This document shows, in pieces, positions 1,257 through 22,108 of a stretch of DNA of 33,697 bases. The position numbers and the translations under genes were made by a program. How positions within the stretch are numbered: position 1 is the first letter of the stretch; each line of letters begins with the position of its first letter. Location: contig JAMPEU010000030.1 of the NCBI GenBank assembly GCA_023664865.1, positions 1 through 33,697 of the forward strand. Reading direction: 5' to 3'. The notes under the pieces are model-generated. The model did not search any database, was not told the DNA's origin, and saw only the letters and a program-made list of their open reading frames with translations. The stretch comes from Butyrivibrio sp. Lineage in GTDB: Bacteria > Bacillota > Clostridia > Lachnospirales > Lachnospiraceae.

Positions 1257-1856
1257 TCAGAATTTCTTTATGTACTTCTTCGCGCCGGCGTCCAGGTACG
1301 CTCTGAATATTTCATCAAAGTAAGCCCCATCTATCATGCCGCTATGGAAAAACAGTATAAACGCCCCCGCCATAATGCCGCACATTCCTTCAATATCGAC
1401 TTCGACAGGGAGATTTTGCCTTCTCCAACAAGCCGCTATCCGCTCCATGAACCCGCGGAACAACGTTATCCCCCGCGCTCCGAGCTTCTCCTGCTGCTTC
1501 ACTAGCATTTTGAACACCTCGGAGTAAGTCTCGCGTGTGTCGGTCTTATGCTTCATGTCAATAAGGTAATCAAACAAAACCTTGCTCATCAAGGCTGCGG
1601 GATTGTCCGTCGGCTGCAAAAACAAGCTCTCTGCATCAGCTATTTTCTGCTCCGCACGGTATCTCATTACGTCCAGCACGAACTCATCTTTATCCTTATA
1701 AAAAGTATAAAATCCGCCCTGTGAAATGCCCGCTCTTGCGGTAAGGTCCCTTATGTTTATCGCTTTTACCGAATTGTCGTGAAACATTTCCGTGCCTGTT
1801 TCCAGCAGCTTTTCGCGTATCGCCTGTTTTTCTTCGTCCGAAAATGCTTTTCCCAT
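1257..1856 (-). CDS. TetR/AcrR-family transcriptional regulator
   Basis: A 199-residue TetR-type repressor. The N-terminal DNA-binding domain has the typical order, with INIRDLTARAGISQGGFYTF as helix-turn-helix (about residues 32-51), followed by an all-helical ligand/dimer domain of about 150 residues. I place the start at 1856 (MGKAFSDEEKQ) because AGGAG lies 7 nt upstream; a longer frame from 1877 has no ribosome site. Its promoter (TTGACA, 17 bp, TAACAT at 1928-1900) contains the palindrome GTTAGTATAGACTAAC, which implies autorepression. Six related palindromes precede other genes in this window, so it is the leading candidate for a local master regulator. Downstream, 37 bp away, is the PEP-utilising dikinase. 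The ligand is unknown. The TetR family is clear; the regulon is inferred. Confidence 0.9.
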   Translation of the reverse strand: MGKAFSDEEKQAIREKLLETGTEMFHDNSVKAINIRDLTARAGISQGGFYTFYKDKDEFVLDVMRYRAEQKIADAESLFLQPTDNPAALMSKVLFDYLIDMKHKTDTRETYSEVFKMLVKQQEKLGARGITLFRGFMERIAACWRRQNLPVEVDIEGMCGIMAGAFILFFHSGMIDGAYFDEIFRAYLDAGAKKYIKKF

Positions 1857-1899
1857 TACGCCATCTCCTGTGAACATTTTATGATTTGTTCATAGATAT

Positions 1900-1928
1900 A
1901 TGTTAGTATAGACTAACCCGTTTGTCAA
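1900..1928 (-). promoter_or_regulatory. TetR promoter with palindromic operator (site A)
   Basis: On the minus strand TTGACA (1928-1923), a 17-bp spacer and TAACAT (1905-1900) form a good sigma-A promoter. Positions 1902-1917 read GTTAGTATAGACTAAC: 6-bp perfect arms around a 4-bp centre, filling the spacer and part of the -10. Binding there would block RNA polymerase. This is the best-formed copy of the window-wide GTTAG-N6-CTAAC motif. Confidence 0.75.
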
Positions 1929-1963
1929 GTAGATTTTAACTTATTTCAATACAAATTTTAACA

Positions 1964-2138
1964 GTTCAGCCCACCGGCGCATGGCTACATATGATTCCCT
2001 GCAGAGACTCTTAAAAAACGTCGGCACTTAGTGAAAAAGCTGTTTTTTAGCTTTTGAACTTAGTACCGTTACGTTTTTTACGGAGCGAGAGCATGTCTCA
2101 AAGGGAATCATATGTAGCCATGCGTCGGTGGGCTGAAC
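1964..2138. repeat. 175-bp element with 37-bp inverted terminal arms
   Basis: Positions 1964-2000 and 2102-2138 are reverse complements over 37 bp with one difference (G at 1977), which would be a G-U pair in RNA. The 101-bp interior is also structured: GAGAC/GTCTC, an AAAAAACGT/ACGTTTTTT pairing with CGG/CCG beside it, and a central AAAAGC/GCTTTT hairpin flanked by two direct ACTTAGT copies. It lies between the end of operon L (stop 2172) and the TetR promoter. It could be a MITE-like non-autonomous element, a very long transcript-end hairpin, or a structured RNA. No transposase or obvious target-site duplication was found. The structure is seen directly; its nature is not known. Confidence 0.8.
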
Positions 2139-2171
2139 CCTTTTCCCATTTCCGGAGTTATCTGTATAATT

Positions 2172-2885
2172 TTAATCATTATACCAATACCCCTTTTCAT
2201 CAATTTTGCGCGGGTGTTCTTTCGCTATGCCGCTTTGGCCGCCCACAATCCAATAATCGCATATATCGCTGTTGGCACAGGTGTGCCTGCGAATCAATGC
2301 GCCGTTTATCATATCCATCGCCGGATAATCGCTGTTGCAGAATGCAGGCATAATATCCAGATAACCATGTTCTTTTGCAAATTCTGCAATCGGACAGCGG
2401 TGAAATTGGTATCTCACGCCTTCGGTCTTACTGTATGGCTCTACATTCATGATGTAGCCTGTCGGCTGCTTGGGCGATTTCTTATCCTTTTTTGCTATTA
2501 TCACAAAAGCCAGATGCAGAAGCCTTAAAAGCAACGGCTTATTTGGATTGACTACTCCGGCTAATTTCTGAAAAGCCGGAAGGAATACTGCTACATTCAT
2601 CTCATAAAGTTCATCAATAGACGGCTTTGGATTAAGGACTTCATAATATGCGAAAATCATAATGCAGTCATATGTTCCGCCCACGCCGTTGTGCGTGCTC
2701 TTTTTTCCACCAAGATATGGAAGTTCCTTGAGAAAAGCTGCATATTGCAGTTGAATCTTGTTCCAGACTTCATTTACACAGTCTGAATCGTATCTTTCGG
2801 ATAACTTTTCCCGAATGACCTTCTCTATTTCAGGCGAATACAAAATATGTTTGTTCAGGTCGATATCCAATTCAGATGCCCTCAT
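2172..2885 (-). CDS. ATC-hydrolase-like protein (L-2-amino-thiazoline-4-carboxylate hydrolase family), operon L
   Basis: A 237-residue soluble protein. The C-terminal third (FHRCPIAEFAKEHGYLDIMP, then AFCNSDYPAMDMINGALIRR) resembles the Cys-containing core of the family named for L-2-amino-thiazoline-4-carboxylic acid hydrolase, which opens a thiazoline ring on the way to cysteine. Most clostridial members are uncharacterised, so the name indicates fold rather than substrate. The start at 2885 is set by AGGAG 9 nt upstream; an in-frame TTG at 2906 would place that site inside the gene. It is the last gene of operon L. The gene at 10476-11105 is a divergent paralogue (DITPALCHLDYTMSDAGGTT) and is also last in its operon. 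Confidence 0.65.
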   Translation of the reverse strand: MRASELDIDLNKHILYSPEIEKVIREKLSERYDSDCVNEVWNKIQLQYAAFLKELPYLGGKKSTHNGVGGTYDCIMIFAYYEVLNPKPSIDELYEMNVAVFLPAFQKLAGVVNPNKPLLLRLLHLAFVIIAKKDKKSPKQPTGYIMNVEPYSKTEGVRYQFHRCPIAEFAKEHGYLDIMPAFCNSDYPAMDMINGALIRRHTCANSDICDYWIVGGQSGIAKEHPRKIDEKGYWYND

Positions 2886-2996
2886 TAAATCCTTCTCCTT
2901 TATCAAGCCGATTTGTCTTTCCTATGATTAAGTTTACCGTAATTTTCTCTATATCGCACTTTTTTAGGCAATTGCGAAAATCTTATCCAGAGGAAC

Positions 2997-3012
2997 GAAA
3001 TTGCACAATTTC
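2997..3012. promoter_or_regulatory. Perfect palindrome in an operon L gap
   Basis: GAAATTGCACAATTTC has 7-bp arms around CA, in the 183-bp gap between two operon L genes. It differs from the GTTAG-N6-CTAAC motif. It might be an operator or a small RNA hairpin; I saw no convincing promoter beside it. The rest of the gap shows nothing recognisable. Confidence 0.3.
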
Positions 3013-3068
3013 TGGTTATCAACTAAGCAGTTTCGTAATTATTTATTTACAGCCAAGAGCAGATATGT

Positions 3069-3560
3069 CTACCATGCCAGCGTACATATCCATGCAATAA
3101 ATGCGCAAACAAACGGATAAACGATAATACGGATTATCTGGCTCTTTAAGTTAAAACCGTATTTGTGAAAGCTCTCACATACATCTACTTCCGGATAATA
3201 GTGCTGAAAGAATCGTGTCCGAGTCACCAGTAAAAAGTCAAAGCAAATCATATCATACGCCTTATAAGCATACAGTATAGTCAAAAATCTTACAAAAAAC
3301 TGCCGGAAACCAAAATTGCTCTGCACGCCGTCCCATACAGCGAAAACCGCAGTTGCTATAAGTATCAGCAGGCTTATGATTAAAAGCGCCCAGCCAAGCA
3401 GATGCTGTCCTTTGAACCGTTCCGGTTTGGGCTGTATCAGCTCTTGGGCGTCTTTGGGTGCAGAGCCGAAAAAACGCTTATCCTGCACCAGCGCTACCGC
3501 CGAATACAGCATAAGGGTAATCGCACCTATTACAAGTAGTGAAAGTAAAATTGTCACCAT
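3069..3560 (-). CDS. Small integral membrane protein, four predicted TM segments, operon L
   Basis: A 163-residue membrane protein with no function I can name. Hydrophobic stretches fall near residues 3-22, 55-77, 88-110 and 142-162, with a charged loop (QDKRFFGSAPKDAQELIQPK) after the first. The start at 3560 (MVTILLSLLVIGA) follows AAGGAGG; an in-frame GTG at 3578 would include that site and is rejected. Layout and a shared patch (FVRFLTILYAYKAYDMICFD against FVHAVILLEVMNWYDGIVVD) make it a likely paralogue of the protein at 12747-13226 in operon R. It lies between a SAM methyltransferase and an ATC-hydrolase-like gene. Confidence 0.7.
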   Translation of the reverse strand: MVTILLSLLVIGAITLMLYSAVALVQDKRFFGSAPKDAQELIQPKPERFKGQHLLGWALLIISLLILIATAVFAVWDGVQSNFGFRQFFVRFLTILYAYKAYDMICFDFLLVTRTRFFQHYYPEVDVCESFHKYGFNLKSQIIRIIVYPFVCAFIAWICTLAW

Positions 3561-3629
3561 ACATATCCTCCTTTCCACATTTCACTTCATAACTTTTCAA
3601 TAAATATGCAGACCTGCTGAATAGTTATT

Positions 3630-4427
3630 TCAGTTCTTTTTCAGTACCACCAGTTTATTAGAAATATTTTTTACCATCGGTATCCAGCCGACCAGACGAT
3701 ATATGGGCATAATGATTTTCATGCCCTCTGCAAGACTGACGTCGCGAATCCATCTATATGACGGCGCAATGCCGATAAGCTCCCTGCCTGATTTAACGCC
3801 CCATGTAAATTTTGCCTGTGTTTTCTCAATGGACTTTTCTTTGACATTTCTTACAACCCACGGACTCATGACTTCCATGATAACTTCTGCCGAATTAAAC
3901 CGTCCGCTGATAATCGCAAGGATTTTTTTCACATCCTGTTCTAACAAATACATAGATAAACCTTCTATGATAACCAGTACCCTGCCGCCCGTTTCTTCTA
4001 TCTCTTCCGCCCAGCCCTCGTCCATAGCGGATTTTGCAATCATGGAAATATGCCCGTCTTCCTGCAGAAAAAGCCGACGGACTTCTATCGTCTCCGGAAG
4101 GTCCAGATTATACCAGCGGACAGACTCGCTTATGTTCAGACGGTATGCTCTTGTATCCAGCCCGCAGGCGATATTAACTACCGTTCCCCGCGGGTTTTCC
4201 TTAAGAAAATCTCCTACCATGCCATCAAGCAGTATTGTTCTGGCAATCACGCCTTTTGACATCATGGCGTCCTTTCCTGCTGAAGAAAAATCATAATCCA
4301 TGCGGGATACAATCTCTACCGCTTTATCATCGTGAAATTTTGCATCTTTTCCTCCGGAATATGCCGCACGCGCATATAATGTCTGCAGCATGGTTTCCGG
4401 TACGCCCTGCATTTGTATTTTTTTCAT
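3630..4427 (-). CDS. Class I SAM-dependent methyltransferase, LCM/PPM1 (Tcmp-like) family
   Basis: A 265-residue cytosolic methyltransferase. Motif I is VVNIACGLDTRAYRL (residues 83-97), the signature of the leucine-carboxyl-methyltransferase/PPM1 family. YNLDLPETIEVRRLF (about 106-120) supplies the acidic loop and EGLSMYLLEQDV follows around 175. Bacterial members include O-methyltransferases of secondary metabolites; the acceptor here is unknown. The start at 4427 has GGAGG 10 nt upstream. The same frame runs open to 4829, but that part overlaps the ZIP gene antiparallel to its code and is not coding. It is 23 bp downstream of the ZIP gene and 69 bp upstream of the 4-TM gene, in operon L. 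Confidence 0.85.
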   Translation of the reverse strand: MKKIQMQGVPETMLQTLYARAAYSGGKDAKFHDDKAVEIVSRMDYDFSSAGKDAMMSKGVIARTILLDGMVGDFLKENPRGTVVNIACGLDTRAYRLNISESVRWYNLDLPETIEVRRLFLQEDGHISMIAKSAMDEGWAEEIEETGGRVLVIIEGLSMYLLEQDVKKILAIISGRFNSAEVIMEVMSPWVVRNVKEKSIEKTQAKFTWGVKSGRELIGIAPSYRWIRDVSLAEGMKIIMPIYRLVGWIPMVKNISNKLVVLKKN

Positions 4428-4450
4428 TTTCAAGTTTCCTCCATTCCTTT

Positions 4451-5230
4451 TTATCCTAATGCCACATCTAACGCCATCATGACGGTAAATCCCGCTGCAA
4501 AAAGAACCGTTCCCACATTGGAGTGGTTTCCTTCCGACATCTCCGGTATCAACTCTTCTACTACCACATAGACCATCGCGCCTGCGGCAAAACTCAAAAG
4601 ATACGGCAAAAGCGGAACAACGAGACCTGCCGCCAGAATAGTAAGCGCCGCTCCGATCGGCTCCACTGCGCCTGAAAGTGCGCCATAAAGAAATGCCTTT
4701 CCTTTGCTTACGCCTTCTGCGCGCAATGGCATGGAAATGATTGCGCCTTCCGGGAAGTTCTGTATGGCAATCCCTAAAGAAAGCGCTAACGCGCCCATTG
4801 CCGTAATCCCTGCATCTTTTGAAAGCCAACCGGCATAGACCACGCCAACCGCCATACCTTCCGGCAGATTGTGAAGCGTCACTGCGAGCACCAGCATGGT
4901 TGTTTTCTGCAGATTGCTCTTAGGACCTTCCGCCTTACTGCTGTTCATATGCAGATGTGGAACTGTCCGGTCCAAAATAAGCAGAAACAGAATGCCTATC
5001 CAAAAGCCGGCTACAGCAGGAATAAACGCCCACTTTCCCATATTTTCCGCCTGCTCCATTGCAGGAACCAGCAGGCTCCAGATGGAAGCCGCCACCATAA
5101 CCCCCGCCGCAAATCCGGTCAACGCCCTCTGCAGCAAGGGATTTAACTTATTCTTCATAAAAAGCACACATGCCGCCCCAAGCGCCGTGCCAACGAATGG
5201 TATCATAACGCCCTGAAAAACTTTAATCAC
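4451..5230 (-). CDS. ZIP-family metal transporter
   Basis: A 259-residue inner-membrane divalent metal (Zn, Fe or Mn) importer of the ZIP family, with about eight TM segments. The metal-site helices are visible as HNLPEG (about residues 120-125) and QNFPEG (157-162), plus a His-bearing loop (VPHLHMN) before them. I set the start at a GTG at 5230 with GGAGG 8 nt upstream. An ATG at 5302 would add 24 residues, has no ribosome site, and would put a regulatory palindrome (5261-5276) inside the coding region. That palindrome gives this gene its own TetR-type control inside operon L. The metal cannot be assigned from sequence. Confidence 0.88.
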   Translation of the reverse strand: MIKVFQGVMIPFVGTALGAACVLFMKNKLNPLLQRALTGFAAGVMVAASIWSLLVPAMEQAENMGKWAFIPAVAGFWIGILFLLILDRTVPHLHMNSSKAEGPKSNLQKTTMLVLAVTLHNLPEGMAVGVVYAGWLSKDAGITAMGALALSLGIAIQNFPEGAIISMPLRAEGVSKGKAFLYGALSGAVEPIGAALTILAAGLVVPLLPYLLSFAAGAMVYVVVEELIPEMSEGNHSNVGTVLFAAGFTVMMALDVALG

Positions 5231-5260
5231 AGAAACTGCCTCCGGTATTTCATAATTACA

Positions 5261-5276
5261 GTTAGCACAAACTAAC
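5261..5276 (-). promoter_or_regulatory. TetR-type operator upstream of the ZIP gene (site B)
   Basis: GTTAGCACAAACTAAC matches GTTAG-N6-CTAAC exactly and ends about 31 bp before the GTG start at 5230. On the minus strand TTGGGT and TAATTA, 16 bp apart, could be a weak promoter spanning the site. This would allow internal, separately repressed transcription of the transporter and genes below it. Confidence 0.6.
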
Positions 5277-5308
5277 CCAACTTCAACCCATTGCTTATCC
5301 ATATTGCT

Positions 5309-5797
5309 TTACGCAGAACGTGATATCCACGGAATACACCGGTTTACCTTCTTGCAATATTCTTCATATTCCCTGCCGTATAGGTTTTTCAGCCATTTTT
5401 CTTCCGTGCATTTCATAAGCGCTGTCATAAATATCCAATAGAAAAAGAACAACGGCATAAAAAACAGATTCCCCTCAATCATAAGCGCACCCGTACACAA
5501 AAACATAAACGCCGAATAAATCGGATTGCGCACCAACGCATATACGCCGGTTGTTGCCAGACTATTCTCCGCAATATGCTTGTCTATCTTTGATTTAAAC
5601 ATTGCCCCTGCCCACAGATAAATACCAAGCAAAATCAGCAGTATTCCTATGATACACAGCGGGACTTTAAGGAAATCAACCACTCCTTTTTCAAATATGG
5701 CATTCCTTCCCAAAATAACCGCGATTACCGTCGCCGCAATGATTACCGCGACATAAACCGGACCTACCCCAATCATCGGGAGATGTTGTTTCTTCAT
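5309..5797 (-). CDS. Isoprenylcysteine carboxyl methyltransferase / PEMT-like membrane methyltransferase
   Basis: A 162-residue integral membrane protein with four to five TM helices. The C-terminal half carries the family signature LATTGVYALVRNPIYSAF (about residues 80-97) and EEKWLKNLYGREYEEYCKKV followed by RCIPW (about 132-157), which bind SAM in isoprenylcysteine carboxyl methyltransferases and phospholipid methyltransferases. Bacterial members have varied or unknown acceptors, often lipids or small hydrophobic compounds. The start at 5797 overlaps the upstream stop as ATGA, with GGAG 7 nt before it, indicating translational coupling. A longer frame to 5959 only shadows the upstream gene. 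Second gene of operon L. Confidence 0.85.
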   Translation of the reverse strand: MKKQHLPMIGVGPVYVAVIIAATVIAVILGRNAIFEKGVVDFLKVPLCIIGILLILLGIYLWAGAMFKSKIDKHIAENSLATTGVYALVRNPIYSAFMFLCTGALMIEGNLFFMPLFFFYWIFMTALMKCTEEKWLKNLYGREYEEYCKKVNRCIPWISRSA

Positions 5798-6516
5798 GAC
5801 CATTCTCCTTTTTTCGTTACAAAAAGCAGCCCGCCGAACATCCAGAGATTCCCGAGGCTGATCCAGCCTGTCGCAAAGGCATTCGTCAAAGGCAGATTCG
5901 GAATCTTTAATACTGCCGCTGCCAGTATGCCGAACAAAACCGAAAATATCCATGTCCATTTCGGAAGCGGCGTAAACCCCTTTGCAAAAGCCATTATCTG
6001 CGTCACGAATAATATGAAAAAGAAAATTAAAAACACAAGCGTCGCAGGAGCAAGGAAATAAGTTAAAAATTTTACGGTCATTTCATATGCTGTATCCGGA
6101 CTGAGTGCAGCCATTTTCTTCATAAAATAAACCATCATGCAGCAAGGCACATGAACCCCGCATCCGCCAAAAATCAGGCAGCCGAATATCCCCGCACGGT
6201 ATGTATGCGCATATTTTTCGCTTTTACCGGCTATCAGCCGATAAATCGCAAAATAACACAGACATTCCAACGGAATCCCTATCATGCCTAAAAGCGCCGA
6301 CCAGAATATTCTTATATCCGATACGTCCAGATATCTTGCAAAAGTCACGGGAATACCGTAAACTTCCGTCTTAGCCGCCCCATAGCCCAGCAGCATATCA
6401 CCGGCAAGAACCATGAACGCCGCTACAAGCCCGATTTTCATAAGGTGCCGTATCCTCGGCATATCCAGCTCGCTGCTGATGCCGATATTGTTAAAATGAT
6501 TTTCTGTCTTTTTCAT
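5794..6516 (-). CDS. Seven-TM membrane protein of unknown function (first gene of operon L)
   Basis: A 240-residue protein with about seven hydrophobic segments and an N-terminal cytosolic tail of about 25 residues. I recognise it only as a clostridial uncharacterised membrane family, possibly the one annotated DUF6796. The motif AGDMLLGYGA in the first helix, a Cys/His patch (GGCGVHVPCCMM) mid-protein, and a late PKWTWIFSVLFG segment are notable. The protein at 11188-11805 has the same layout with ACDMLLIYAPGG, AAHHVFCG and PRWGCIFNV, so the two are paralogues. The ATG at 6516 follows AGGAGG. It is preceded by two operator copies and a strong promoter. Confidence 0.75.
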   Translation of the reverse strand: MKKTENHFNNIGISSELDMPRIRHLMKIGLVAAFMVLAGDMLLGYGAAKTEVYGIPVTFARYLDVSDIRIFWSALLGMIGIPLECLCYFAIYRLIAGKSEKYAHTYRAGIFGCLIFGGCGVHVPCCMMVYFMKKMAALSPDTAYEMTVKFLTYFLAPATLVFLIFFFILFVTQIMAFAKGFTPLPKWTWIFSVLFGILAAAVLKIPNLPLTNAFATGWISLGNLWMFGGLLFVTKKGEWS

Positions 6517-6582: not shown

Positions 6583-6598
6583 GTTAGTATAAGCTAAC
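6583..6598 (-). promoter_or_regulatory. TetR-type operator, operon L proximal (site C)
   Basis: GTTAGTATAAGCTAAC, an exact match to GTTAG-N6-CTAAC, 66 bp before the first operon L start. On the minus strand TTGATG and TAACTT, 16 bp apart, flank or overlap it in the arrangement seen at site A, so a second promoter may lie here. Confidence 0.6.
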
Positions 6599-6627
6599 CA
6601 ACCATCAAATAAAAAGCGGCCCCGTTT

Positions 6628-6643
6628 GTTAGTAGCCGCTAAC
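6628..6643 (-). promoter_or_regulatory. TetR-type operator at the operon L transcription start (site D)
   Basis: GTTAGTAGCCGCTAAC, exact to the consensus, begins 8 bp after the -10 at 6656-6651 and so covers the expected start of transcription. Its core is nearly identical to site E of operon R (GTTAGCAGCCGCTAAC). In RNA the AGCGGC arm can pair with GCCGCT about 14 nt later (6620-6615), followed by a TTTTTATTT run, so an attenuator hairpin just inside the transcript is possible. Confidence 0.65.
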
Positions 6644-6650: not shown

Positions 6651-6679
6651 AGTATACTCCATCTTCTTTACTCTGTCAA
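6651..6679 (-). promoter_or_regulatory. Operon L promoter
   Basis: On the minus strand TTGACA (6679-6674), a 17-bp spacer and TATACT (6656-6651) make a near-consensus sigma-A promoter. It is followed directly by operator D and, 45 bp further, operator C. The leader to the first start codon is about 130 nt. Confidence 0.7.
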
Positions 6680-8917: not shown

Positions 8918-9291
8918 TTATTGCCTTCACCGCCCTTCCAATACTTTCTTAAATCTTCATAATCCTTAGACGAAAGCAAGTCTTTTTGGATAAGCGTGGA
9001 AACAAGCCCTTTTGCACTGCCTTCATAGAGTTTATCAAGCAGGGTTTTGGTCTGCGCCTCTTGATAATCCACTTCTAAAACAGTCGCCGTATATTGATTA
9101 CGGAAACCTGTTTTACTTGCTTTTAAAAAGCCTTTATTAGTCAGGCGCGAAAGCAAAGTTATAATCGTGTTTTTAGTCCACGGAGTCCCTTTATCTTCTA
9201 ACGCCTTGACAATTTCCGCATATAAAGCCATGCCGCCGTTAGCCCATACAATTTTCATAAGCTCCAATTCATAATCCGATATTTGCTGCAT
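8914..9291 (-). CDS. BlaI/MecI-family transcriptional repressor
   Basis: A 125-residue winged-helix repressor. MQQISDYELELMKIVWANGG followed by WTKNTIITLLSRLTNKGFLK is the standard BlaI/MecI N-terminal fold; the C-terminal dimerisation helices hold the protease-sensitive region. The start at 9291 has AAGGAGG 7 nt upstream; a frame extending to 9564 is a non-coding overrun. The stop overlaps the M56 protease start. Upstream are two TACA-N3-TGTA-like operators, so it should repress itself and the protease until the protease is activated. No beta-lactamase or PBP gene is adjacent; other targets would lie elsewhere. Confidence 0.92.
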   Translation of the reverse strand: MQQISDYELELMKIVWANGGMALYAEIVKALEDKGTPWTKNTIITLLSRLTNKGFLKASKTGFRNQYTATVLEVDYQEAQTKTLLDKLYEGSAKGLVSTLIQKDLLSSKDYEDLRKYWKGGEGNK

Positions 9292-9312
9292 TGTTATCCT
9301 CCTTGTGTGGAT

Positions 9313-9362
9313 TACATTTTGTACTCCACTTACAAGATAACATTCTGTACGCCAGATGTCAA
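9313..9362 (-). promoter_or_regulatory. blaI-type promoter with two BlaI/MecI-like operators
   Basis: On the minus strand TTGACA (9362-9357), a 17-bp spacer and TATCTT (9339-9334). The palindrome TACATTTTGTA (9313-9323) is exact to the TACA/TGTA operator type, and AACATTCTGTA (9339-9349) is a one-base variant 26 bp away inside the spacer. Two operators overlapping and following the promoter is the known autoregulatory layout for this family. Confidence 0.7.
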
Positions 9363-10475: not shown

Positions 10476-11105
10476 TTATTTCTTCTTATACCCGCAGTCG
10501 CAGTACGGTCCGCCGGACGCCAGCGTGTACTCCCGCACAAATTCCGTCGTCCCTCCTGCGTCCGACATCGTATAATCCAAGTGGCACAACGCCGGAGTAA
10601 TATCAAAGATTCCTAATTTCTTCATTAAAGCGCAGATGCCGCAGCACTCAAACCTTGCCTCATAGCCGCTTCCGTCAGGATAAGGCAGAAATTTCATATT
10701 CCACGAATACGGATTCCTGTCGCCGGCGCGAAAAGCTTCCGTTTGTTTAAGCCCCGCTATGTCCTTCGGCGTGAATTTCTTTTTGCCGGACTGGGCGCAA
10801 AACCATTTCATCGGCTTTATCGTCATGGCGTTAGCATAATAATCCGTCATCTGCTCCACAGAAGGCTTTTGCGGCATATTGAGATAAAACGCCGCCAGCA
10901 TCGAGGCGTTGACGATGTTCATTTTAAAGCGGTCTTCCTTTTCAAATTCAGGCAGTTCCCTTATAATCTCCTGATACTTTGTTTTTGCCCGCCTCTTAAC
11001 TTCTTTTGCCGTACCCGCATCAAAGTCTAAAGTCACAGACAACTGCTTTTTAAAAGATGCGCAAAACAGCATCCACATACCCATAGGCATACCTACATAT
11101 TTCAT
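10476..11105 (-). CDS. ATC-hydrolase-like protein, operon R
   Basis: A 209-residue protein with the C-terminal signature of the L-2-amino-thiazoline-4-carboxylate hydrolase-like family: FECCGICALMKKLGIFDITP, ALCHLDYTMSDAGGTTEFVR, ending GGPYCDCGY. This form, with Cys in CGIC, ALC and CDC, is closer to the typical clostridial type than its paralogue at 2172-2885. The substrate is unproven. The ATG at 11105 is preceded by GGAG sites. It is the last gene of operon R, and its 3' end abuts the break in the truncated hydrolase on the other strand. Family call moderately sure. Confidence 0.7.
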   Translation of the reverse strand: MKYVGMPMGMWMLFCASFKKQLSVTLDFDAGTAKEVKRRAKTKYQEIIRELPEFEKEDRFKMNIVNASMLAAFYLNMPQKPSVEQMTDYYANAMTIKPMKWFCAQSGKKKFTPKDIAGLKQTEAFRAGDRNPYSWNMKFLPYPDGSGYEARFECCGICALMKKLGIFDITPALCHLDYTMSDAGGTTEFVREYTLASGGPYCDCGYKKK

Positions 11106-11187
11106 ATCACTCCACTCCTGTCTTTATTTCAGATTTACTTTGTCCATCAGTGCAAAAATATGAAAATTTCATAATCCTACCACACTA

Positions 11188-11805
11188 TTACATTAACAGA
11201 AAAAGCCCTAAAAACATAATCATTCCCGCCAGATTCCCCGCCCCCGGCGCTTTAAGCAGCATAAGTATAAGGTAAAGCGGGGCGACGTTGAATATACAGC
11301 CCCAGCGCGGAAGAGATGTATTCCCCATAACGACGGCTATAAAAAGGGTTATTACCGAAACCGCCTGTCCCAAATAGCAGACATACATGGTGGATAAGGT
11401 TGCTTTAAAAAAATCCAGAGCCGTTTCCCGCGCCTCTTCCGTCCTTCCCAGCCGTATGTAAAACCATTCCACCGCGCCGCAGAATACATGGTGCGCCGCT
11501 CCTGAAATAAAAAACACTACCGCCGCCGTTATCATGATTACGGCATAAACAACGGAAAACTGCTTCATCCACTCATATAAAGCAAAATATCCGCCAAAAG
11601 ACATCATCAGCGCAAGCAGCCCGAGCATCATGGACGCAAGCGGCTTTTTTAACGACATTCCTGCAAAAACTTTCGCCATCTTTTGATTATCTTTTAAACA
11701 TTCAAAACTGAATTTTCCGCCCGGCGCATATATTAAGAGCATATCGCACGCCCAGCAAAGCGCGTGTCCGGCAAACGCCATTAAAATCAGCATTTTTATC
11801 ACCAT
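11188..11805 (-). CDS. Six/seven-TM membrane protein of unknown function, operon R
   Basis: A 205-residue multi-pass membrane protein, paralogous in layout to 5794-6516: first helix with CWACDMLLIYAPGG, mid-protein AAHHVFCGAVEWFY, late PRWGCIFNVAPLY. The His pair and Cys before the third or fourth helix are shared features that might bind a metal or lie in an active site; this is speculation. The start at 11805 has a GGGGGG run 7 nt upstream; a longer frame to 11904 overlaps the upstream gene and is rejected. It follows the BAAT-like hydrolase by 16 bp. Confidence 0.72.
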   Translation of the reverse strand: MVIKMLILMAFAGHALCWACDMLLIYAPGGKFSFECLKDNQKMAKVFAGMSLKKPLASMMLGLLALMMSFGGYFALYEWMKQFSVVYAVIMITAAVVFFISGAAHHVFCGAVEWFYIRLGRTEEARETALDFFKATLSTMYVCYLGQAVSVITLFIAVVMGNTSLPRWGCIFNVAPLYLILMLLKAPGAGNLAGMIMFLGLFLLM

Positions 11806-11821
11806 ATTAATCCCCCCCTTA

Positions 11822-12712
11822 TCACCATTCACCAAGAGCATTGAAAATATCTTCACTACTCTTCTTTCTCGCCGCCTCACAAGCCTGCGGATATTTCTTT
11901 TCATTGGGGCAGCTCCGTTTAAACATTCTCATCATTCGTTTGTCGCCTTTAGGGCAAATGCCGATAGCATGGCTTGCATTTTCGTATGCGATTTCCCTGA
12001 CTTCATGCGCAAAACCACATTCCTGCAGAACTTTTATCATTCTCGCCGTCGCTGCGTCTGACGGCCATACATCGTCCCATGTCGGATGCAGGAAAAGAAT
12101 ATCGCCATTGATATTCTCCACCTTAATGCGCGATTCCGGATTCAGCCGCGCCGTCTCATAAGCCGCCCTCATAAAATATTTGAAACCGTACTCCGGCGTT
12201 TTATGGAACTTTTGCAAGCCCTTCCACAAACCATCGTCGAGAATGGAAAAAGGCGTATACGGCAGATTTTCACCCTGATACTCATATACTGAAAATCCAA
12301 GGGGCTTTATCATATTTTTCATCGCTTCCATCACATAATCAAAAGGAACTACCGCAATAACCTTCGTAATCTGCGGGATAAGCGATGCACAAAGGAGCGT
12401 ATATCCCGCGCCCGTAGAAGTTCCCATCATGCAGATTTCTCCGTATCCGTTCTCATTCAGCCATTTACACGCTTTCTTTGCAAAATCCACTGGAATATGT
12501 ATCAGTTCGCGCGGAAGCCCTTTCCAGAGATAAAATCCCAGAACCATCACAGAATATCCCTGCGCCGCTATTTCTTCGCCCATTTTTATGCATGTTTCTT
12601 CATTACAGCCCGCGCCGCCAACAAATAAGACCGCTTTTCCCGCTTTTTTATGTCCCCTATGGAAATACGCCCTAAATCCGTCTTTTTGCAATTCAAAACG
12701 CACCCAGTCCAT
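11822..12712 (-). CDS. Alpha/beta hydrolase, acyl-CoA thioesterase / BAAT C-terminal-like
   Basis: A 296-residue cytosolic alpha/beta hydrolase. The nucleophile elbow is MGTSTGAGY with S99, the acid lies in HPTWDDVWPSDA (D213 or D214), and the base is H248 in ENASHAIG. The DDVWPS segment and overall order resemble the C-terminal catalytic domain of acyl-CoA thioester hydrolases and bile-acid-CoA:amino acid transferases (BAAT_C), but the N-terminal BAAT domain is absent, so it may act on another ester or thioester. The start has AGGAGAGG upstream. Third gene of operon R. Confidence 0.82.
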   Translation of the reverse strand: MDWVRFELQKDGFRAYFHRGHKKAGKAVLFVGGAGCNEETCIKMGEEIAAQGYSVMVLGFYLWKGLPRELIHIPVDFAKKACKWLNENGYGEICMMGTSTGAGYTLLCASLIPQITKVIAVVPFDYVMEAMKNMIKPLGFSVYEYQGENLPYTPFSILDDGLWKGLQKFHKTPEYGFKYFMRAAYETARLNPESRIKVENINGDILFLHPTWDDVWPSDAATARMIKVLQECGFAHEVREIAYENASHAIGICPKGDKRMMRMFKRSCPNEKKYPQACEAARKKSSEDIFNALGEW

Positions 12713-12746
12713 TGCGCCCTCTCCTTGTATTTTCCGCCTTACTTTC

Positions 12747-13226
12747 TCAGATTATAATTGCAAGTTCTGCCAGCAGCGCCGCCGCTGGAATATAGACCAC
12801 AGACATAATCGCTCTTTCCACTAACACCATCTTATTCGATTTTACATGATTCATATCTTCCGTACCTTTTATCACCCAGAATTTACTGAACCGCACCCAG
12901 ATTTTATCTACCACGATACCGTCGTACCAGTTCATCACTTCAAGTAAAATGACAGCGTGGACAAACGCAGTCTTAAAGTCGGAAATGCCGCTCCAACAGC
13001 CGATAAATACTACAGGCAGTATCACCGAACCCAGAACAAGCGCAGTAAAAAATATGATTTTGCGACGTTTTGCTTCTTCTTTTGTCGTCAGCCCCATCTC
13101 ATACACCTGCTCCTGAATCGGTTTCGGATAGAAGAAAATGCCCCGTACCGGATTATCCAGAACCAACAGCTTTATACATACCGTGAAAAAAATCAAATAT
13201 AAAATAATCTGCAAAATAAAAACCAT
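12747..13226 (-). CDS. Small membrane protein, three to four TM segments, operon R
   Basis: A 159-residue membrane protein without a named function. Hydrophobic segments at about 3-23, 57-78, 82-98 and 137-158, with a charged loop (PKPIQEQVYEMGLTTKEEAK) after the first. Same architecture as 3069-3560 of operon L, including an aromatic WYDGIVVDKIWV patch after the third segment, so the two look paralogous. It starts at ATG 13226 with AAGGAG upstream and lies between two alpha/beta hydrolase genes (gaps of 21 and 34 bp). Confidence 0.68.
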   Translation of the reverse strand: MVFILQIILYLIFFTVCIKLLVLDNPVRGIFFYPKPIQEQVYEMGLTTKEEAKRRKIIFFTALVLGSVILPVVFIGCWSGISDFKTAFVHAVILLEVMNWYDGIVVDKIWVRFSKFWVIKGTEDMNHVKSNKMVLVERAIMSVVYIPAAALLAELAIII

Positions 13227-13247
13227 GACCTACTCCTTTCAGCTGCC

Positions 13248-14027
13248 TCACTCTATCCCGCAGCAGTTTCTGATTTCCTGCGCCCATTCTTTCGGGTAGC
13301 AGATTAGAAGTTCCTCATGCTGCAGCTCATGACGGCGGATATCCGGATTTTTAAAGTGCATATGATACCGCTCCAGATACATTTCCCCCATTTTTACAGC
13401 GTAAAAGACATGTATCGTCGTGCCGGGTACGGAAATATCATTTTCAATCGGTGTAACCAAATCCGAATAGAATTGATTGCGAATGCTTTCCCGTCTGACA
13501 AAGGACATGCGGGTATTGCTCATACCGAACATATCCATCATTTTCTCATAATACTGTCTTTCGCCTTCCGGCTGTTTCTCAAGGCGTTTCTGCATAAATC
13601 CCGGCACTCTGCCCTTCTTAAACATACCGTGCAGCATTTTACCAATCAACCAAGCCTTAAATTTTGCAGACAGCCCGCTATCCTGATCCATATCGGAGCT
13701 GCCTATTATAGCATGGCTGATATGTATTTTCTTACGCTGCACCAGCAGCCCTACAAAACTCCCGCCTAAAGAACAACCGTAAGCGGCATGGATTTGACCG
13801 CCGAATTTTTCTTTGACATAGCCTTCAATCTTCTCCGTTTCCGTCAGCATATCGGGAAAAATTGCGTCCTCGGTTTCGTCAAAACCGTCATACGATACGC
13901 AGACCACCCTAAAGTCCGGCTCAAGAAGCTTTATGACTGCCTCAAAATTAGACTTCCAATGGCAGCATGTGCCCGGAAGTAATAATATCGCTGGAGAACT
14001 GCTCTCTCCAAATTCATAGAATTTCAT
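13248..14027 (-). CDS. Alpha/beta hydrolase (first gene of operon R)
   Basis: A 259-residue alpha/beta hydrolase-fold protein. The N-terminal strand carries ILLLPGTCCHW as oxyanion region, the nucleophile elbow is AYGCSLGGSF with S86, and a C-terminal His in LQHEELL (about 237) is the likely base. The substrate is unknown and similarity to named enzymes is weak. The start at 14027 is preceded by GGAG about 10 nt away. It is first in an operon with a long leader (about 160 nt) holding two TetR-type operators. Confidence 0.8.
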   Translation of the reverse strand: MKFYEFGESSSPAILLLPGTCCHWKSNFEAVIKLLEPDFRVVCVSYDGFDETEDAIFPDMLTETEKIEGYVKEKFGGQIHAAYGCSLGGSFVGLLVQRKKIHISHAIIGSSDMDQDSGLSAKFKAWLIGKMLHGMFKKGRVPGFMQKRLEKQPEGERQYYEKMMDMFGMSNTRMSFVRRESIRNQFYSDLVTPIENDISVPGTTIHVFYAVKMGEMYLERYHMHFKNPDIRRHELQHEELLICYPKEWAQEIRNCCGIE

Positions 14028-14123: not shown

Positions 14124-14139
14124 ATTAGTATTATCTAAC
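14124..14139 (-). promoter_or_regulatory. TetR-type operator, operon R proximal (site F)
   Basis: ATTAGTATTATCTAAC differs from GTTAG-N6-CTAAC at one base. It overlaps a second palindrome, ACTAAT-ATTA-ATTAGT (14114-14129), giving three spaced half-sites. Spacing to site E is 46 bp, compared with 45 bp between C and D of operon L. Confidence 0.5.
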
Positions 14140-14169
14140 CATTATTTTTAATATATGCGACTACTATTT

Positions 14170-14185
14170 GTTAGCAGCCGCTAAC
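14170..14185 (-). promoter_or_regulatory. TetR-type operator at the operon R transcription start (site E)
   Basis: GTTAGCAGCCGCTAAC, exact to the consensus, starts 8 bp after the -10. In RNA the GCGGCTGCT arm can pair with AGTAGTCGC 7 nt later (nine pairs, two of them G-U). The site and its surroundings, TTTGTTAGYAGCCGCTAAC and AGTATACTCC, match operon L almost base for base. Confidence 0.65.
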
Positions 14186-14193: not shown

Positions 14194-14223
14194 AGTATAC
14201 TCCTTTTGTCCTGTGTTTGTCAA
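14194..14223 (-). promoter_or_regulatory. Operon R promoter
   Basis: On the minus strand TTGACA (14223-14218), an 18-bp spacer and TATACT (14199-14194). Both elements are the same as in the operon L promoter. It precedes operators E and F and the alpha/beta hydrolase gene. Confidence 0.65.
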
Positions 14224-18674: not shown

Positions 18675-20714
18675 TCAGAAAACCAGACAGCCGACATGAT
18701 ACGCAATAGCCGCCAAAAGCAGCGACATGGCGATATAATAGCCTGCCACGCACAACGTCCACTTCAGCGAATGGGTTTCATGCACGGTCGCGCTCATTGT
18801 CATAAGGCAGGGCATATTAAAATAAAATGCGAATATAAACGCCAACGCCTCCGGCTTTGTCAAGGCAGCGGAAAGGCTCGCCGCCACCGTCGCGGAATTT
18901 GCGGTTTCCATCTTCTGCATGGCTATCGTCTGCAGGACATTGCCATTATTGGCGTTGCTGAACACAGCGCCTAAAACACCAAGAGAGCCTTCCTTTCCCA
19001 TCATGGACGCAAGCCAGGCAATAAATGTCTGCCAGCGCAAGCCAAACCACATAGTCACAGGTTCAATCACGCTTCCCACCCGGTATAATAAGCTTCCGGT
19101 CAGATTCCCATCTGACGTATAGGAAAGCGCCCACATGATGACAAGCACGATTGTCACGAGATGGATTGCCCGCTTAAACGCCGACGCCATCTTGTCGATA
19201 GACCTGCGGAACAGACTTCCCCACCGCGCCTTATGGTATGGCGGAAGCTCCATAATAAGCCCTGTCTTATCCGATTCTTTTAAGAAACGTTTACCGAATA
19301 CACGCGCCGTAATCTGCAGATGCAGTACTGAAACAACAAACAGCAGAAATACGATAAGCGCCGCGCCCGGTCCGAAAAACACAGTGGAAACCAGACCTAC
19401 AACCGCCCATGTAGAACCGCACGGCACTACCCATGACATCGAGATTGCCGCCATTCTCTGTCCCCATGTGTCCAGCACACGCGCGCCGGTGGCTCCGGCA
19501 ATATTACAGCCAAAACTCACAAGAAACGGCATAATTGCTTTCCCATGAAGTCCAAGCCGCCGCATAGTCCCATCAAACACATAGGAAATACGCGCCATAT
19601 AACCGATTTCTTCCAAAAATCCGAATGCAAAAGTCGTTCCGAATACAAAGCCGCACATCATAACTGTGAATGAAAAAGCCGTCCAAATTCCATCGCACAG
19701 CAGCGAAACCAAAATCGGAGCGGTATTAATGCTAAGCAGCCATTCCGACACAGGAACGGCGAGCATCGGCAGCATACTCCCCAGATACATTACCGGGGCG
19801 GCAAGCACCATTGACGCCATAAGCCCTAAAAGGATAACCCCTGCGGCTAGCCATTTTCCCTTACCTTTAGAAACAGCCAGACGGTCGAATTTTCCCAGCT
19901 TATTTTTCTCCTGCCCCTTGCTTACGCTGTCTATAAGGATACTGTCAATCCAGCGGAATTTACATTCTCCGGTATGCGACGCGCCGTTTTGTACGCCGCT
20001 AAGCTCTTTTTTGATTGTTAAAAGGCGCTCTTTTCCGATTGAATTTTCTACTATATTCTCCGCCACCGCATCGTTTTCTGCCAATTTAGCAAAAATCCAG
20101 CCGTTTTCATACACCGAGATGCCGCCGTCCGCAAGCAGCTCCATGACATTTTGATAAGTTTTGCCAAACTCAGACTCATATAATTCAAACAACGCCGCTG
20201 AATCGGGAATCCAGTTTTCTTTTCCGCTTCGTTCAAGCAGTTTATAAAATTCTGCATAATCCTTTTTTTCAGACGCAGTAAAAGGCAGCACGGGAATGCC
20301 GAGCTTTTTCTCAATAGCGGAAGCGTCAATCTTTTTCCCTTGCGCTTTGGCTACGTCCATCATATTAAGTAAAAGTATGACAGGAACTTTGATACCTGTA
20401 TAATCCGCCAGCATAAAAAGACTCCGCTCCAACTGCGACGCATCCGCAAGTATACAGACAAGGTCGGCACCGCCGCTTGCAATATAATCCCTTGTGACAA
20501 TCTCTTCTTCCGAGTTTGCCGCAAGACTATATGTTCCGGGCAGGTCTACCACATTGTATGTATTTCCGGCATATTTGAAAGTACCTGAATTTTGCTCCAC
20601 CGTTTTGCCGGGCCAGTTGCCGACATGCTGGTGCGAACCCGTCAGGGCATTATAAAAAGTTGACTTTCCCGAATTAGGCTGTCCTAAAAGAGCAATAGTC
20701 ATTATCTCATTCAT
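18675..20714 (-). CDS. feoB: Ferrous iron transporter FeoB
   Basis: A 679-residue inner-membrane Fe(II) importer. The N-terminal G domain shows GQPNSGKST (residues 11-19, G1), DLPG (57-60, G3) and NMMD (117-120, G4). A helical guanine-dissociation-inhibitor region follows, then the Gate-type membrane domains from about residue 280 with GFLEEIGYMARISY and SFGCNIAGATGARV. The start at 20714 has GGAGG 9 nt upstream; a TTG two codons earlier is less likely. It overlaps feoA by 8 bp. Length suits clostridial FeoB without the FeoC-like or extended C-terminus. It is downstream of an AraC-type regulator. Confidence 0.95.
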   Translation of the reverse strand: MNEIMTIALLGQPNSGKSTFYNALTGSHQHVGNWPGKTVEQNSGTFKYAGNTYNVVDLPGTYSLAANSEEEIVTRDYIASGGADLVCILADASQLERSLFMLADYTGIKVPVILLLNMMDVAKAQGKKIDASAIEKKLGIPVLPFTASEKKDYAEFYKLLERSGKENWIPDSAALFELYESEFGKTYQNVMELLADGGISVYENGWIFAKLAENDAVAENIVENSIGKERLLTIKKELSGVQNGASHTGECKFRWIDSILIDSVSKGQEKNKLGKFDRLAVSKGKGKWLAAGVILLGLMASMVLAAPVMYLGSMLPMLAVPVSEWLLSINTAPILVSLLCDGIWTAFSFTVMMCGFVFGTTFAFGFLEEIGYMARISYVFDGTMRRLGLHGKAIMPFLVSFGCNIAGATGARVLDTWGQRMAAISMSWVVPCGSTWAVVGLVSTVFFGPGAALIVFLLFVVSVLHLQITARVFGKRFLKESDKTGLIMELPPYHKARWGSLFRRSIDKMASAFKRAIHLVTIVLVIMWALSYTSDGNLTGSLLYRVGSVIEPVTMWFGLRWQTFIAWLASMMGKEGSLGVLGAVFSNANNGNVLQTIAMQKMETANSATVAASLSAALTKPEALAFIFAFYFNMPCLMTMSATVHETHSLKWTLCVAGYYIAMSLLLAAIAYHVGCLVF

Positions 20715-20937
20715 TTCCAACTACCTCCACCATAATTCCTGTGCAGTCTTCCCTATCCACCGCAAGAAGCGTGCTGCGTATATCCAAAAGCACAGGATAT
20801 TTCTTCTCATTCTGTACTACGGAAAAACTGCTGCCCGGCGTCACGCCTACGGCGGTAATTCTTCGCTGAAAATCCGATTTTCCGGCTACAGACAGCACCC
20901 TGCCTGACTTTCCTTCCTTTACTTCACTCAAAACCAT
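20707..20937 (-). CDS. feoA: FeoA, ferrous transport accessory protein
   Basis: A 76-residue SH3-like FeoA: VLSEVKEGKSGRVLSVAG, then RRITAVGVTPGSSFSVVQ, ending in IRSTLLAVDREDCTGIMVEV. It binds FeoB and is needed for iron uptake. The start at 20937 has AAGGAGG close upstream; a frame running to 21000 passes into the repeat at 20965. The stop overlaps the FeoB start. Confidence 0.92.
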   Translation of the reverse strand: MVLSEVKEGKSGRVLSVAGKSDFQRRITAVGVTPGSSFSVVQNEKKYPVLLDIRSTLLAVDREDCTGIMVEVVGNE

Positions 20938-20964
20938 CTCTGTTTCCTCCTTAATGTATAACTT

Positions 20965-20996
20965 TTGTTGCCATTCACAGCCTATATGGCATGAAA
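20965..20996. repeat. Half copy of the 14257 palindromic repeat
   Basis: 31 of 32 bases match 14251-14282, up to and including the GGCATGAA inner arm; the right half is missing. It lies in the 86-bp gap between the AraC gene and feoA. Confidence 0.7.
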
Positions 20997-21023
20997 TCAA
21001 TCACTTACAAATTTTTCTTCACT

Positions 21024-21992
21024 CTATTCCTGATAATTTATCCTGCGGTACTCCAAGGGCGACAGCCCCGTGCATTCTTTGAACACTGCCCCGAACTTTC
21101 CCTGATTGGCGTATCCGCACGCAGCCGCAATCGCTCCCACGCTTTCTTTTGTTTTCGACAACTGCCGCTTGGCAAGCAAAATTCTCTTTTCCCTAAGATA
21201 AAATGAAATAGGCTGTCCATAGACCGCTTCAAAATATTTCTTTAACGCAGACGGGCTTACTCCATATTTCTTCGCCATATCCGTAATCGTATAATGGCGG
21301 CTGAGATTTTGGGTAATCATCTGTTCTACTTCATCGGCAATGCGCTTCTGTCCCTTAGTGATATAAAATCTGTCAACAATCGGTATAGTGCCGCCATTTA
21401 TCAGCGCATAGAGCAAAAGCATAAGGTGTAGGCGGTAATCCGCAAGCTCCCAGTCCGCCGCCGTCAGATGTGAGTACAGCAGGTTCATAAGCCTGTCACA
21501 CTCGTTTGCCACCCCGCCAAGATAAGTACCGTTATGTGCAGAAAGCAGCTCCCTAATCCAGCCGTCATAATTACAATAGTCAGACATTGCCACAATCGGC
21601 TGTCCGGCAAGCAGGTCCAAATCAAAAACCAACTCCAAACCCGTATAATTCCGATTAGGATACCAATAACCGCCCTTCGGCTCATGCTCGTCAAGGCACA
21701 ACATTCCCTGTTCCATATAAATATAAGTATTATCTGGCAGACAGACTTCGCAGCGCCCGCCGATGCAATAATTCAGCGTTACATAATGATGTCCGGTTTC
21801 TACGCTGATATAAGGCAGATGCTTATCCTCAATCTTATTCGCCCATAATAAAAGCCCATTCCACGGGCAACAGGCGAACATTCGGCTGTTTGTATCCTTT
21901 ATCGCAACGCACGACACGCTTTTGCTTAACGCAGACTGCTTATACATGGAATGGGCAAAAGCCGCTGCCGTCCCGGATATGTTGTCCGGCAT
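21024..21992 (-). CDS. AraC-family transcriptional regulator upstream of feoAB
   Basis: A 322-residue regulator. The C-terminal DNA-binding domain has the usual two helix-turn-helices: YTITDMAKKYGVSPSALKKY (about 245-264) and SVGAIAAACGYANQGKFGAV with FKECTGLSPLEYRR near the end. The N-terminal 200 residues form an unidentified sensor. The arrangement resembles PchR-type regulators near iron genes, but the ligand is unknown. The start at 21992 follows GGGGG by 9 nt; a GTG at 21999-22001 is less likely. It probably shares a transcript with feoAB, and its promoter carries a TetR-type operator. Confidence 0.88.
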   Translation of the reverse strand: MPDNISGTAAAFAHSMYKQSALSKSVSCVAIKDTNSRMFACCPWNGLLLWANKIEDKHLPYISVETGHHYVTLNYCIGGRCEVCLPDNTYIYMEQGMLCLDEHEPKGGYWYPNRNYTGLELVFDLDLLAGQPIVAMSDYCNYDGWIRELLSAHNGTYLGGVANECDRLMNLLYSHLTAADWELADYRLHLMLLLYALINGGTIPIVDRFYITKGQKRIADEVEQMITQNLSRHYTITDMAKKYGVSPSALKKYFEAVYGQPISFYLREKRILLAKRQLSKTKESVGAIAAACGYANQGKFGAVFKECTGLSPLEYRRINYQE

Positions 21993-22088
21993 TTCACACA
22001 CCCCCTATTATTTATGTTTTAGTCGGTTTTGATTACTATATATCTGCCTTCAATTTTTGTCCTTCTTTTCTTTAGACATTTCTATCTT

Positions 22089-22108
22089 TGGTTAGCATGC
22101 ACTAACCA
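22089..22108 (-). promoter_or_regulatory. TetR-type operator upstream of AraC-feoAB (site G)
   Basis: TGGTTAGCATGCACTAACCA contains the consensus GTTAG-N6-CTAAC (22091-22106) with arms extended to 7 bp. On the minus strand it directly follows TATAAT (22115-22110), so it covers the likely transcription start of the AraC gene about 100 bp upstream of its ATG. Confidence 0.65.

What the first reader, a model, noticed from the sequence alone, without database searches (positions are those of the whole stretch)
1257..22108. Candidate local TetR regulon: seven GTTAG-N6-CTAAC palindromes over 20 kb
Seen: 16-bp palindromes at 1902, 5261, 6583, 6628, 14170 and 22091 match exactly and 14124 differs by one base. 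All are in promoters or leaders of minus-strand genes: TetR itself, ZIP, operon L (two), operon R (two) and AraC-feoAB. At 1902 it fills the spacer of the TetR promoter; at 6628, 14170 and 22091 it follows the -10. Known: TetR proteins bind such palindromes and often repress themselves. Inference: this TetR (1257-1856) coordinates two gene sets of unknown function with iron and ZIP metal uptake and a PEP-utilising dikinase. A regulon this dense in one region is unusual, and I know of no description of it.
Basis: partly seen in the sequence, partly recalled or inferred. Interest (0 to 1): 0.8.

Follow-up and report, generated by a model that had tools for sequence, protein, structure and literature searches.

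The report
Iron-box regulon, not a TetR regulon
The repeated DNA palindromes are real, but they look like switches for an iron-sensing repressor shared across a large bacterial family, and the TetR gene is probably one of the genes being switched rather than the one doing the switching.

Summary
Observation confirmed: six exact GTTAG-N6-CTAAC palindromes plus one with a single mismatch. The whole genome has 11 exact sites, 2 for the reversed control, all 11 between genes, all fitting GTTAGY-N4-RCTAAC. The TetR reading is not supported: a TetR orthologue occurs in 5 of 60 congeners, the motif in 55 of 60 and in 248 of 299 family genomes. In all 10 congeners with exactly one site, it lies at feoA1-feoA2-feoB, ferrous iron uptake; dtxR is often divergent from feo with a site between. 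The core matches the one-dimer IdeR/DtxR consensus TTAGGNNNNCCTAA (PMC8464063, passages). Best reading: a DtxR-type, probably iron-dependent repressor controls feo, ZIP, ABC transporters, AraC, TetR and uncharacterised operons. Against: G045 has nine sites but no detected DtxR gene. New: at operons L and R the promoter-proximal operator also supplies one arm of a covarying hairpin near the inferred mRNA 5' end, with a second operator about 45 bp on; the cassette recurs in other genera. No binding or expression data were available.

The parts
1902..1917 (-). operator in the tetR promoter
   Evidence: exact match; conserved with 0 or 1 mismatch in 15 of 15 orthologue sequences
1257..1856 (-). 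tetR gene, read here as a target
   Evidence: PF00440 TetR_N; orthologue in 5 of 60 congeners
5261..5276 (-). operator in the leader of ZIP
   Evidence: exact match
4451..5230 (-). ZIP-family metal transporter (GTG start at 5230 preferred)
   Evidence: PF02535; CGGAGG before the GTG
6651..6679 (-). promoter of operon L, TTGACA-17-TATACT
   Evidence: scan, 11 of 12 consensus bases
6628..6643 (-). operator 1 of operon L
   Evidence: exact match
6613..6643 (-). operator-hairpin element of operon L
   Evidence: model R1, E 9.2e-7 (this copy was in the training set); -11.4 kcal/mol, z -2.35
6583..6598 (-). operator 2 of operon L
   Evidence: exact match, 45 bp from operator 1
2172..6516 (-). operon L genes: DUF6796, PEMT/ICMT-type methyltransferase, ZIP, LCM methyltransferase (3630 to about 4424), a membrane protein, ATC_hydrolase; co-transcription inferred
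   Evidence: Pfam, ORFs
14194..14223 (-). promoter of operon R, TTGACA-18-TATACT
   Evidence: scan, 11 of 12 consensus bases
14170..14185 (-). operator 1 of operon R
   Evidence: exact match
14154..14185 (-). operator-hairpin element of operon R
   Evidence: model R1, E 7.0e-6 (in the training set); -14.9 kcal/mol, z -4.43
14124..14139 (-). operator 2 of operon R, one mismatch
10476..14027 (-). operon R genes: two alpha/beta hydrolases, a membrane protein, DUF6796, ATC_hydrolase; co-transcription inferred
   Evidence: Pfam, ORFs
22091..22106 (-). operator before araC-feoA-feoB
   Evidence: exact match
18675..22001 (-). araC (21024-22001), feoA (20707-21000), feoB (18675-20720)
   Evidence: Pfam

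Best explanation
GTTAGY-N4-RCTAAC is the operator of a DtxR-family, probably Fe2+-dependent, repressor: the 119-aa protein at contig C65:860-1219, which is divergent from feoA1-feoA2-feoB. With iron plentiful, the metal-loaded dimer binds operators that overlap or directly follow the -10 and blocks transcription. With iron scarce it leaves, and the cell makes ferrous iron transporters, ZIP, ABC transporters of the YbtP/IrtA type, a P1B-type ATPase, secondary regulators (AraC, TetR, TetR2) and the L, R and C86 operons. Shown: the motif, its rarity, its placement, its spread and its link to feo and dtxR. Inferred: which protein binds, the metal and the direction of control. At L, R and C86 an mRNA hairpin near the inferred 5' end is built into operator 1; it most likely affects transcript stability or early elongation (inferred).
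For: Family-wide motif: 248 of 299 genomes. All 10 congeners with exactly one site have it at feoA1A2B; 31 of the 63 site loci examined have feo-type genes within the fetched 1.5 kb flanks. Of 39 dtxR loci examined, 18 have a site with up to one mismatch within 700 bp upstream of dtxR (5 exact), the control pattern 0 of 39; 16 of the 21 with feoA1 alongside have one. Inner core TTAGYNNNNRCTAA against the one-dimer IdeR/DtxR consensus TTAGGNNNNCCTAA (PMC8464063, passages). The C65 protein matches MntR, DtxR and IdeR structures by sequence, and PF02742 is found once in this genome. dtxR matched in 57 of 60 congeners and 285 of 299 family genomes. Six positions aligned with metal ligands, Cys among them, are invariant in 39 of 39. 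Other targets: ZIP, P1B-ATPase, ABC transporters.
Against: G045 (93% complete) has nine sites at iron-type genes but no dtxR hit and no PF02742 match. Seven of the 14 family genomes without a dtxR hit have sites, and PF02742 was not found in any of those 14 or in G010, G045, G052. 21 of the 39 dtxR loci have no such site upstream. The fifth base of each half-site differs from IdeR's (Y/R instead of G/C). A fur-like gene heads the feo operon in four loci, and Fur boxes occur at some relatives' feo loci. No binding or expression data.
Confidence: 0.78

Rival explanations
1. The window TetR (1257-1856) binds the palindromes and represses itself and the other operons.
For: tetR carries a conserved site in its own promoter in 15 of 15 orthologue sequences, and a 16-bp palindrome is typical of TetR operators (recalled).
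Against: 50 of 55 congeners without the orthologue have sites, and 14 of 19 with five or more sites lack it. Homologous operons keep the sites in G016. The motif is family-wide.
Confidence: 0.04
2. Another regulator binds the sites: a Fur-like protein, such as the one that heads some feo operons, or a factor not identified here.
For: G045 has nine sites, no detected DtxR-family gene, and a fur-like gene heading feo behind sites. Fur boxes with up to two mismatches occur in 10 of 21 feo/dtxR loci, one exact.
Against: The motif does not resemble the Fur 7-1-7 box (recalled), and the window has none with up to two mismatches. The fur-like gene was found in only four loci of those fetched, and one of these (L222) also has dtxR on the other side of the site. 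The match is to the DtxR/IdeR half-site.
Confidence: 0.13
3. The binder is this DtxR-family protein but it senses manganese, as MntR does. This is a variant of the best reading and overlaps with it.
For: The best PDB sequence matches are MntR, the best NCBIfam hits are MntR models, below their cut-offs, and ZIP is a target. Residue 9 is Asn, not the Met of DtxR.
Against: Core targets are ferrous iron transporters. Cys is invariant where MntR has Glu, 39 of 39 (ligand roles recalled).
Confidence: 0.12

Closest known systems
IdeR/DtxR iron boxes of Actinobacteria (PMC8464063, passages only)
   Same: Half-site TTAG...CTAA with six bases between, the spacing that paper proposes for one dimer (TTAGGNNNNCCTAA)
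   Different: Fifth base Y/R instead of G/C, a G...C added outside, no full 19-bp two-dimer box; pairs of separate operators 31-34 or 42-46 bp apart instead
MntR branch of the DtxR family
   Same: Small protein, best PDB sequence matches
   Different: Cys where MntR has Glu, Asn where it has Asp (ligand roles recalled); feo targets instead of mntH-type targets
Intrinsic terminators and 5' stabilising stem-loops (recalled)
   Same: A hairpin a few bases from the inferred 5' end, with a T run in many copies of this genus
   Different: Its 5' arm lies inside a repressor operator, so one stretch would serve DNA binding and RNA folding

Membership tests
DtxR/IdeR-type operator | TTAG half-sites as an inverted repeat with one-dimer spacing (TTAGGNNNNCCTAA) | tested here: inconclusive
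   TTAG and CTAA and the spacing match in all 11 exact sites; the fifth base of each half differs from the published consensus
DtxR/IdeR-type operator | found at iron-uptake and dtxR promoters | tested here: met
   10 of 10 single-site congeners at feo; 18 of 39 dtxR loci, control 0 of 39
DtxR/IdeR-type operator | bound by a metal-loaded DtxR-family dimer | not testable with these tools
   needs purified protein
DtxR-family regulator (C65 protein) | sequence membership and metal-binding residues | tested here: met
   the first ligand position is Asn, so the metal stays open
TetR regulon of the window TetR | motif tracks the presence of the TetR orthologue | tested here: not met
   motif in 55 of 60 congeners, orthologue in 5 of 60
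TetR regulon of the window TetR | TetR binds the palindrome | not testable with these tools
   needs purified protein
Fur regulon | Fur 7-1-7 box | tested here: not met
   none with up to two mismatches in the window (box recalled)
Known RNA leader families (Rfam 15) | match at the gathering score | tested here: not met
   0 matches in the window

The most novel reading that the evidence does not exclude
A composite iron switch: a DtxR-type operator sits at the transcription start, and its freely varying centre is at the same time the 5' arm of an mRNA hairpin, with a second operator about 45 bp downstream. One sequence would then give metal-gated initiation and post-initiation control (early termination or 5'-end protection) of iron-starvation operons, carried as a portable promoter cassette between operons and genera.
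Probability: 0.5. Interest if true: 0.62.

Novelty: new variant of a known kind. Interest (0 to 1): 0.5.

Why it matters
If right, one exact motif assigns a metal regulon to much of a large bacterial family (probably Lachnospiraceae, judging from titles of related records) for which the paper listings searched here showed no DtxR regulon. It puts uncharacterised protein families (DUF6796, ATC_hydrolase, LCM-type methyltransferases, several alpha/beta hydrolases) into an iron-starvation setting that can be tested directly. It also corrects a natural misreading: a regulator gene surrounded by operators need not be the protein that binds them.

Tried and rejected
TetR as master regulator: rejected.

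Fur: the window has no Fur box with up to two mismatches. Some relatives carry Fur boxes or a fur-like gene at feo, so Fur may share or replace control there.

The hairpin as a plain intrinsic terminator: not adopted, because the T run is present in many copies of this genus but missing in operon R and in most of the copies shown from other genera, and the pattern scan called neither the L nor the R hairpin a terminator.

An early impression that two TetR orthologues lack the promoter site came from exact matching only and was corrected.

A first contiguous-stem score gave only a modest own-versus-swapped result: own higher in 55% of swaps with a different core, mean 10.9 against 5.0, Wilcoxon p = 0.005; 17 of 34 cassettes and 1 of 39 other promoter-proximal sites score 12 or more. 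It misses stems with an internal mismatch, so the pair count is used as the main test.

Family searches gave broad folds but no function for the L and R enzymes.

Papers: seven searches showed no description of this regulon or of a DtxR operator with a leader hairpin (listings and abstract starts only; open-licence papers only). In PMC9806134 I looked for the E. coli MntR box and the text held does not give it, so that comparison is left out. PMC8464063 was seen as passages, not read through.

Panel error: three panel proteins (LCM, BlaI, DUF6796_R) were made in a wrong frame. Their hits are not used; they were corrected.

Full report
What was checked. With two mismatches allowed the window is not enriched (14 against a mean of 10.05, sd 3.19), so the case rests on exact and near-exact sites. 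The genome of 3.82 Mb has 11 exact GTTAG-N6-CTAAC sites against 2 for the reversed pattern, and 27 against 11 for the tighter form with up to one mismatch. Six of the 11 are in the window. The others are C16:1950 and C16:2835 (either side of a second TetR gene, next to a DUF6796-like gene and an ABC transporter), C65:2032 (between feoA2 and feoB) and C86:2754/2798 (a pair between a P1B-type ATPase and an LCM methyltransferase gene). All 11 lie between genes, given the GTG start of ZIP at 5230, and all fit GTTAGY-N4-RCTAAC.

Is TetR the regulator? In 60 genomes of the genus the motif occurs in 55, with 0 to 15 copies; the control has 0 to 2. An orthologue of the window TetR (80-100% identity) occurs in five: G000, G006, G020, G034, G059. 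The other listed hits are generic TetR matches of 38% identity or less, which is why that search's own tally reads 60 of 60. Fifty of the 55 genomes without the orthologue have sites, and 14 of the 19 genomes with five or more sites lack it. G016 has 15 sites and no orthologue, and its homologues of operon L and R genes (72-88% identity) carry sites, paired ones included. In favour of a link, the tetR promoter keeps a site with 0 or 1 mismatch at about -60 in all 15 orthologue sequences examined, four of which look like second records of one genome. TetR is therefore best seen as a conserved target.

What binds, then? One search compared 63 site loci from the genus with a panel of proteins; 31 of them have feo-type genes within the fetched flanks. 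The cleanest subset is the ten genomes with exactly one site (G002, G008, G010, G030, G032, G038, G040, G041, G048, G050): in all ten it lies at the feoA1-feoA2-feoB operon, nine at its 5' end and one (G010) inside it. Across the family, 248 of 299 genomes (298 genera) have exact sites. Among the 30 loci fetched there (some already held), neighbours again include feoA1A2B, dtxR, ZIP, TetR-ABC pairs and P1B-ATPases, though a good share show no panel match. The DtxR-family protein of this genome has a match in 57 of 60 congeners and 285 of 299 family genomes. Genomes with a match have sites more often (241 of 285 against 7 of 14; Fisher p = 0.004), but draft completeness confounds this. Of 39 dtxR loci examined (the 10 and 29 loci returned for the best matches of those two searches, this genome's own included), 18 have a site with up to one mismatch within 700 bp upstream of dtxR, 5 of them exact; the control pattern has 0 of 39. 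Of the 21 with feoA1 alongside, 16 have one.

The match to a known box. The IdeR study PMC8464063 (passages) argues that one IdeR/DtxR dimer needs TTAGGNNNNCCTAA. The inner 14 bases here are TTAGYNNNNRCTAA: same core and spacing, with only the fifth base of each half different. The C65 protein's solved relatives by sequence are MntR (best), DtxR and IdeR, and PF02742 is found once in this genome, over its cut-off. Six positions that align with metal ligands (ligand roles recalled) are invariant in 39 of 39 loci: Asn9, Glu12, His78, Cys100, Glu103, His104. Cys100 aligns with DtxR Cys102; Asn9 stands where DtxR has Met and MntR has Asp. The Cys and the feo targets favour iron; the Asn leaves the metal open.

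Targets. Besides feoAB and ZIP, the ABC transporter behind the C16 site has 6p6i (grouped with 8vsi, a yersiniabactin-iron transporter) as its best PDB sequence match, with mycobactin importer IrtA third and P-glycoprotein relatives close by, so import of iron chelates is suggested, not shown. Operons L and R hold DUF6796, ATC_hydrolase, methyltransferase and alpha/beta hydrolase families. Their role in iron starvation is inference. Many sites overlap or follow the -10 of sigma70-type promoters (67 of 442 oriented sites by one regular expression), as expected for repression.

Evidence against. G045, 93% complete, has nine sites near iron-type genes (feo, ZIP, P1B-ATPase, a TetR2-like gene) yet no dtxR hit and no PF02742 match; its feo operon begins with a fur-like gene behind two sites, one exact and one with a mismatch. 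Seven of the 14 family genomes without a dtxR hit have sites, and PF02742 was not found in any of those 14 or in G010, G045 and G052. Fourteen absences in 299 drafts is about what missing sequence could produce, but that is an argument, not a test. Fur boxes with up to two mismatches occur in 10 of 21 feo/dtxR loci, one of them exact (no chance control), so Fur may act on feo in some relatives. The fur-like gene was found in four of the fetched loci, always behind a site; in one (L222) dtxR lies on the other side of that site.

A composite promoter cassette. Neighbouring sites come in preferred spacings, 31-34 bp and 42-46 bp; the control pattern gives none (the tally counts pairs in both orientations). 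In the second class a TTGACA...TATA.T promoter is followed by operator 1 and then operator 2, and the variable centre of operator 1 can pair with a segment just downstream. Using promoter and spacing only, not the hairpin, one search took 34 cassettes out of 73 promoter-proximal sites (operator 1 with up to one mismatch, operator 2 with up to two, 42-47 bp on). In 28 of the 34 the predicted best fold is that hairpin; in six it is not (L119, L151, L153:8412, L155:7699, L169, L204:1501). All 34 were kept for the pair count: 82.9% of cells pair, against 76.4 +/- 0.9 in shuffles and 24-57 when the arms are slid; 21 cells have changes on both sides, against 7.3 +/- 2.2 (0 of 500 shuffles as high) and 1-9 when slid. 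Two measures are weaker: five pairs with a double change (39 of 500 shuffles reach it, and one slid version equals it) and 13 further pair types (28 of 500; one slid version equals it). Relatedness inflates such counts, so I read this as good but not final support.

A covariance model built from these 34 finds the element in 19 of 77 genus genomes (E <= 0.001) and 9 of 299 family genomes (E <= 0.01), seven of those outside the genus. Three of the seven are marginal (G136, G181, G219). G246 had supplied two training rows (L204), so its three other copies are new but its genome is not. The seven clear copies outside the genus that were not used for training (L236, L237, L240, L241, L245, L247, L248) all fold into the hairpin behind a promoter-like sequence; five of them also have operator 2. 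Rfam has no match in the window.

How the cassette may work. Repressor on operator 1 would block initiation. The second operator, about four helical turns on, could allow cooperation or a roadblock (inference). Once iron is low, the transcript would start a few bases before a strong hairpin; the start itself is inferred, not mapped. In many copies of this genus a T run follows, as in a terminator; in operon R and most copies shown from other genera it does not. The common denominator is a stem-loop near the 5' end, so protection of the 5' end seems a little more likely than attenuation. A purely DNA-level role of the extra inverted repeat is not excluded.

Verdict. Observation confirmed; TetR interpretation not supported; replaced by a family-wide DtxR-type, probably iron-responsive regulon (confidence 0.78), with a composite operator-hairpin promoter as the least expected part. 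I found no description of either in the paper listings searched, which hold open-licence papers only.

Noticed in passing
window 2-1219: PEP-utilising gene behind tetR. The full-length relative L162:10036-12528 resembles phosphoenolpyruvate synthase and rifamycin phosphotransferase models, all below their cut-offs, so its function is open.
   Followed up: partly
window 6815-9564: BlaR1-type peptidase (PF05569) and BlaI-type repressor (PF03965) pair between the two operons.
   Followed up: no
window 9456-10105: RelB-type antitoxin gene (PF04221) followed by a small ORF that looks like its toxin partner (by eye).
   Followed up: no
window 25046-30469: Two large ORFs that look by eye like EssC and EssB of a type VII secretion system (not searched).
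   Followed up: no
L282:5384-5875, L037, L112, L222: A fur-like gene heads the feoA1A2B operon in four relatives, always behind one or two of these operators.
   Followed up: partly
L213:1312: Exact Fur 7-1-7 box at a feo promoter that lacks the GTTAG operator, which suggests Fur and DtxR-type control may replace each other.
   Followed up: partly
L012:1117-2883 (C16): A second TetR gene flanked by two exact operators; similar TetR2-like genes beside ABC transporters and operators recur in other genera (L180, L191, L193).
   Followed up: partly
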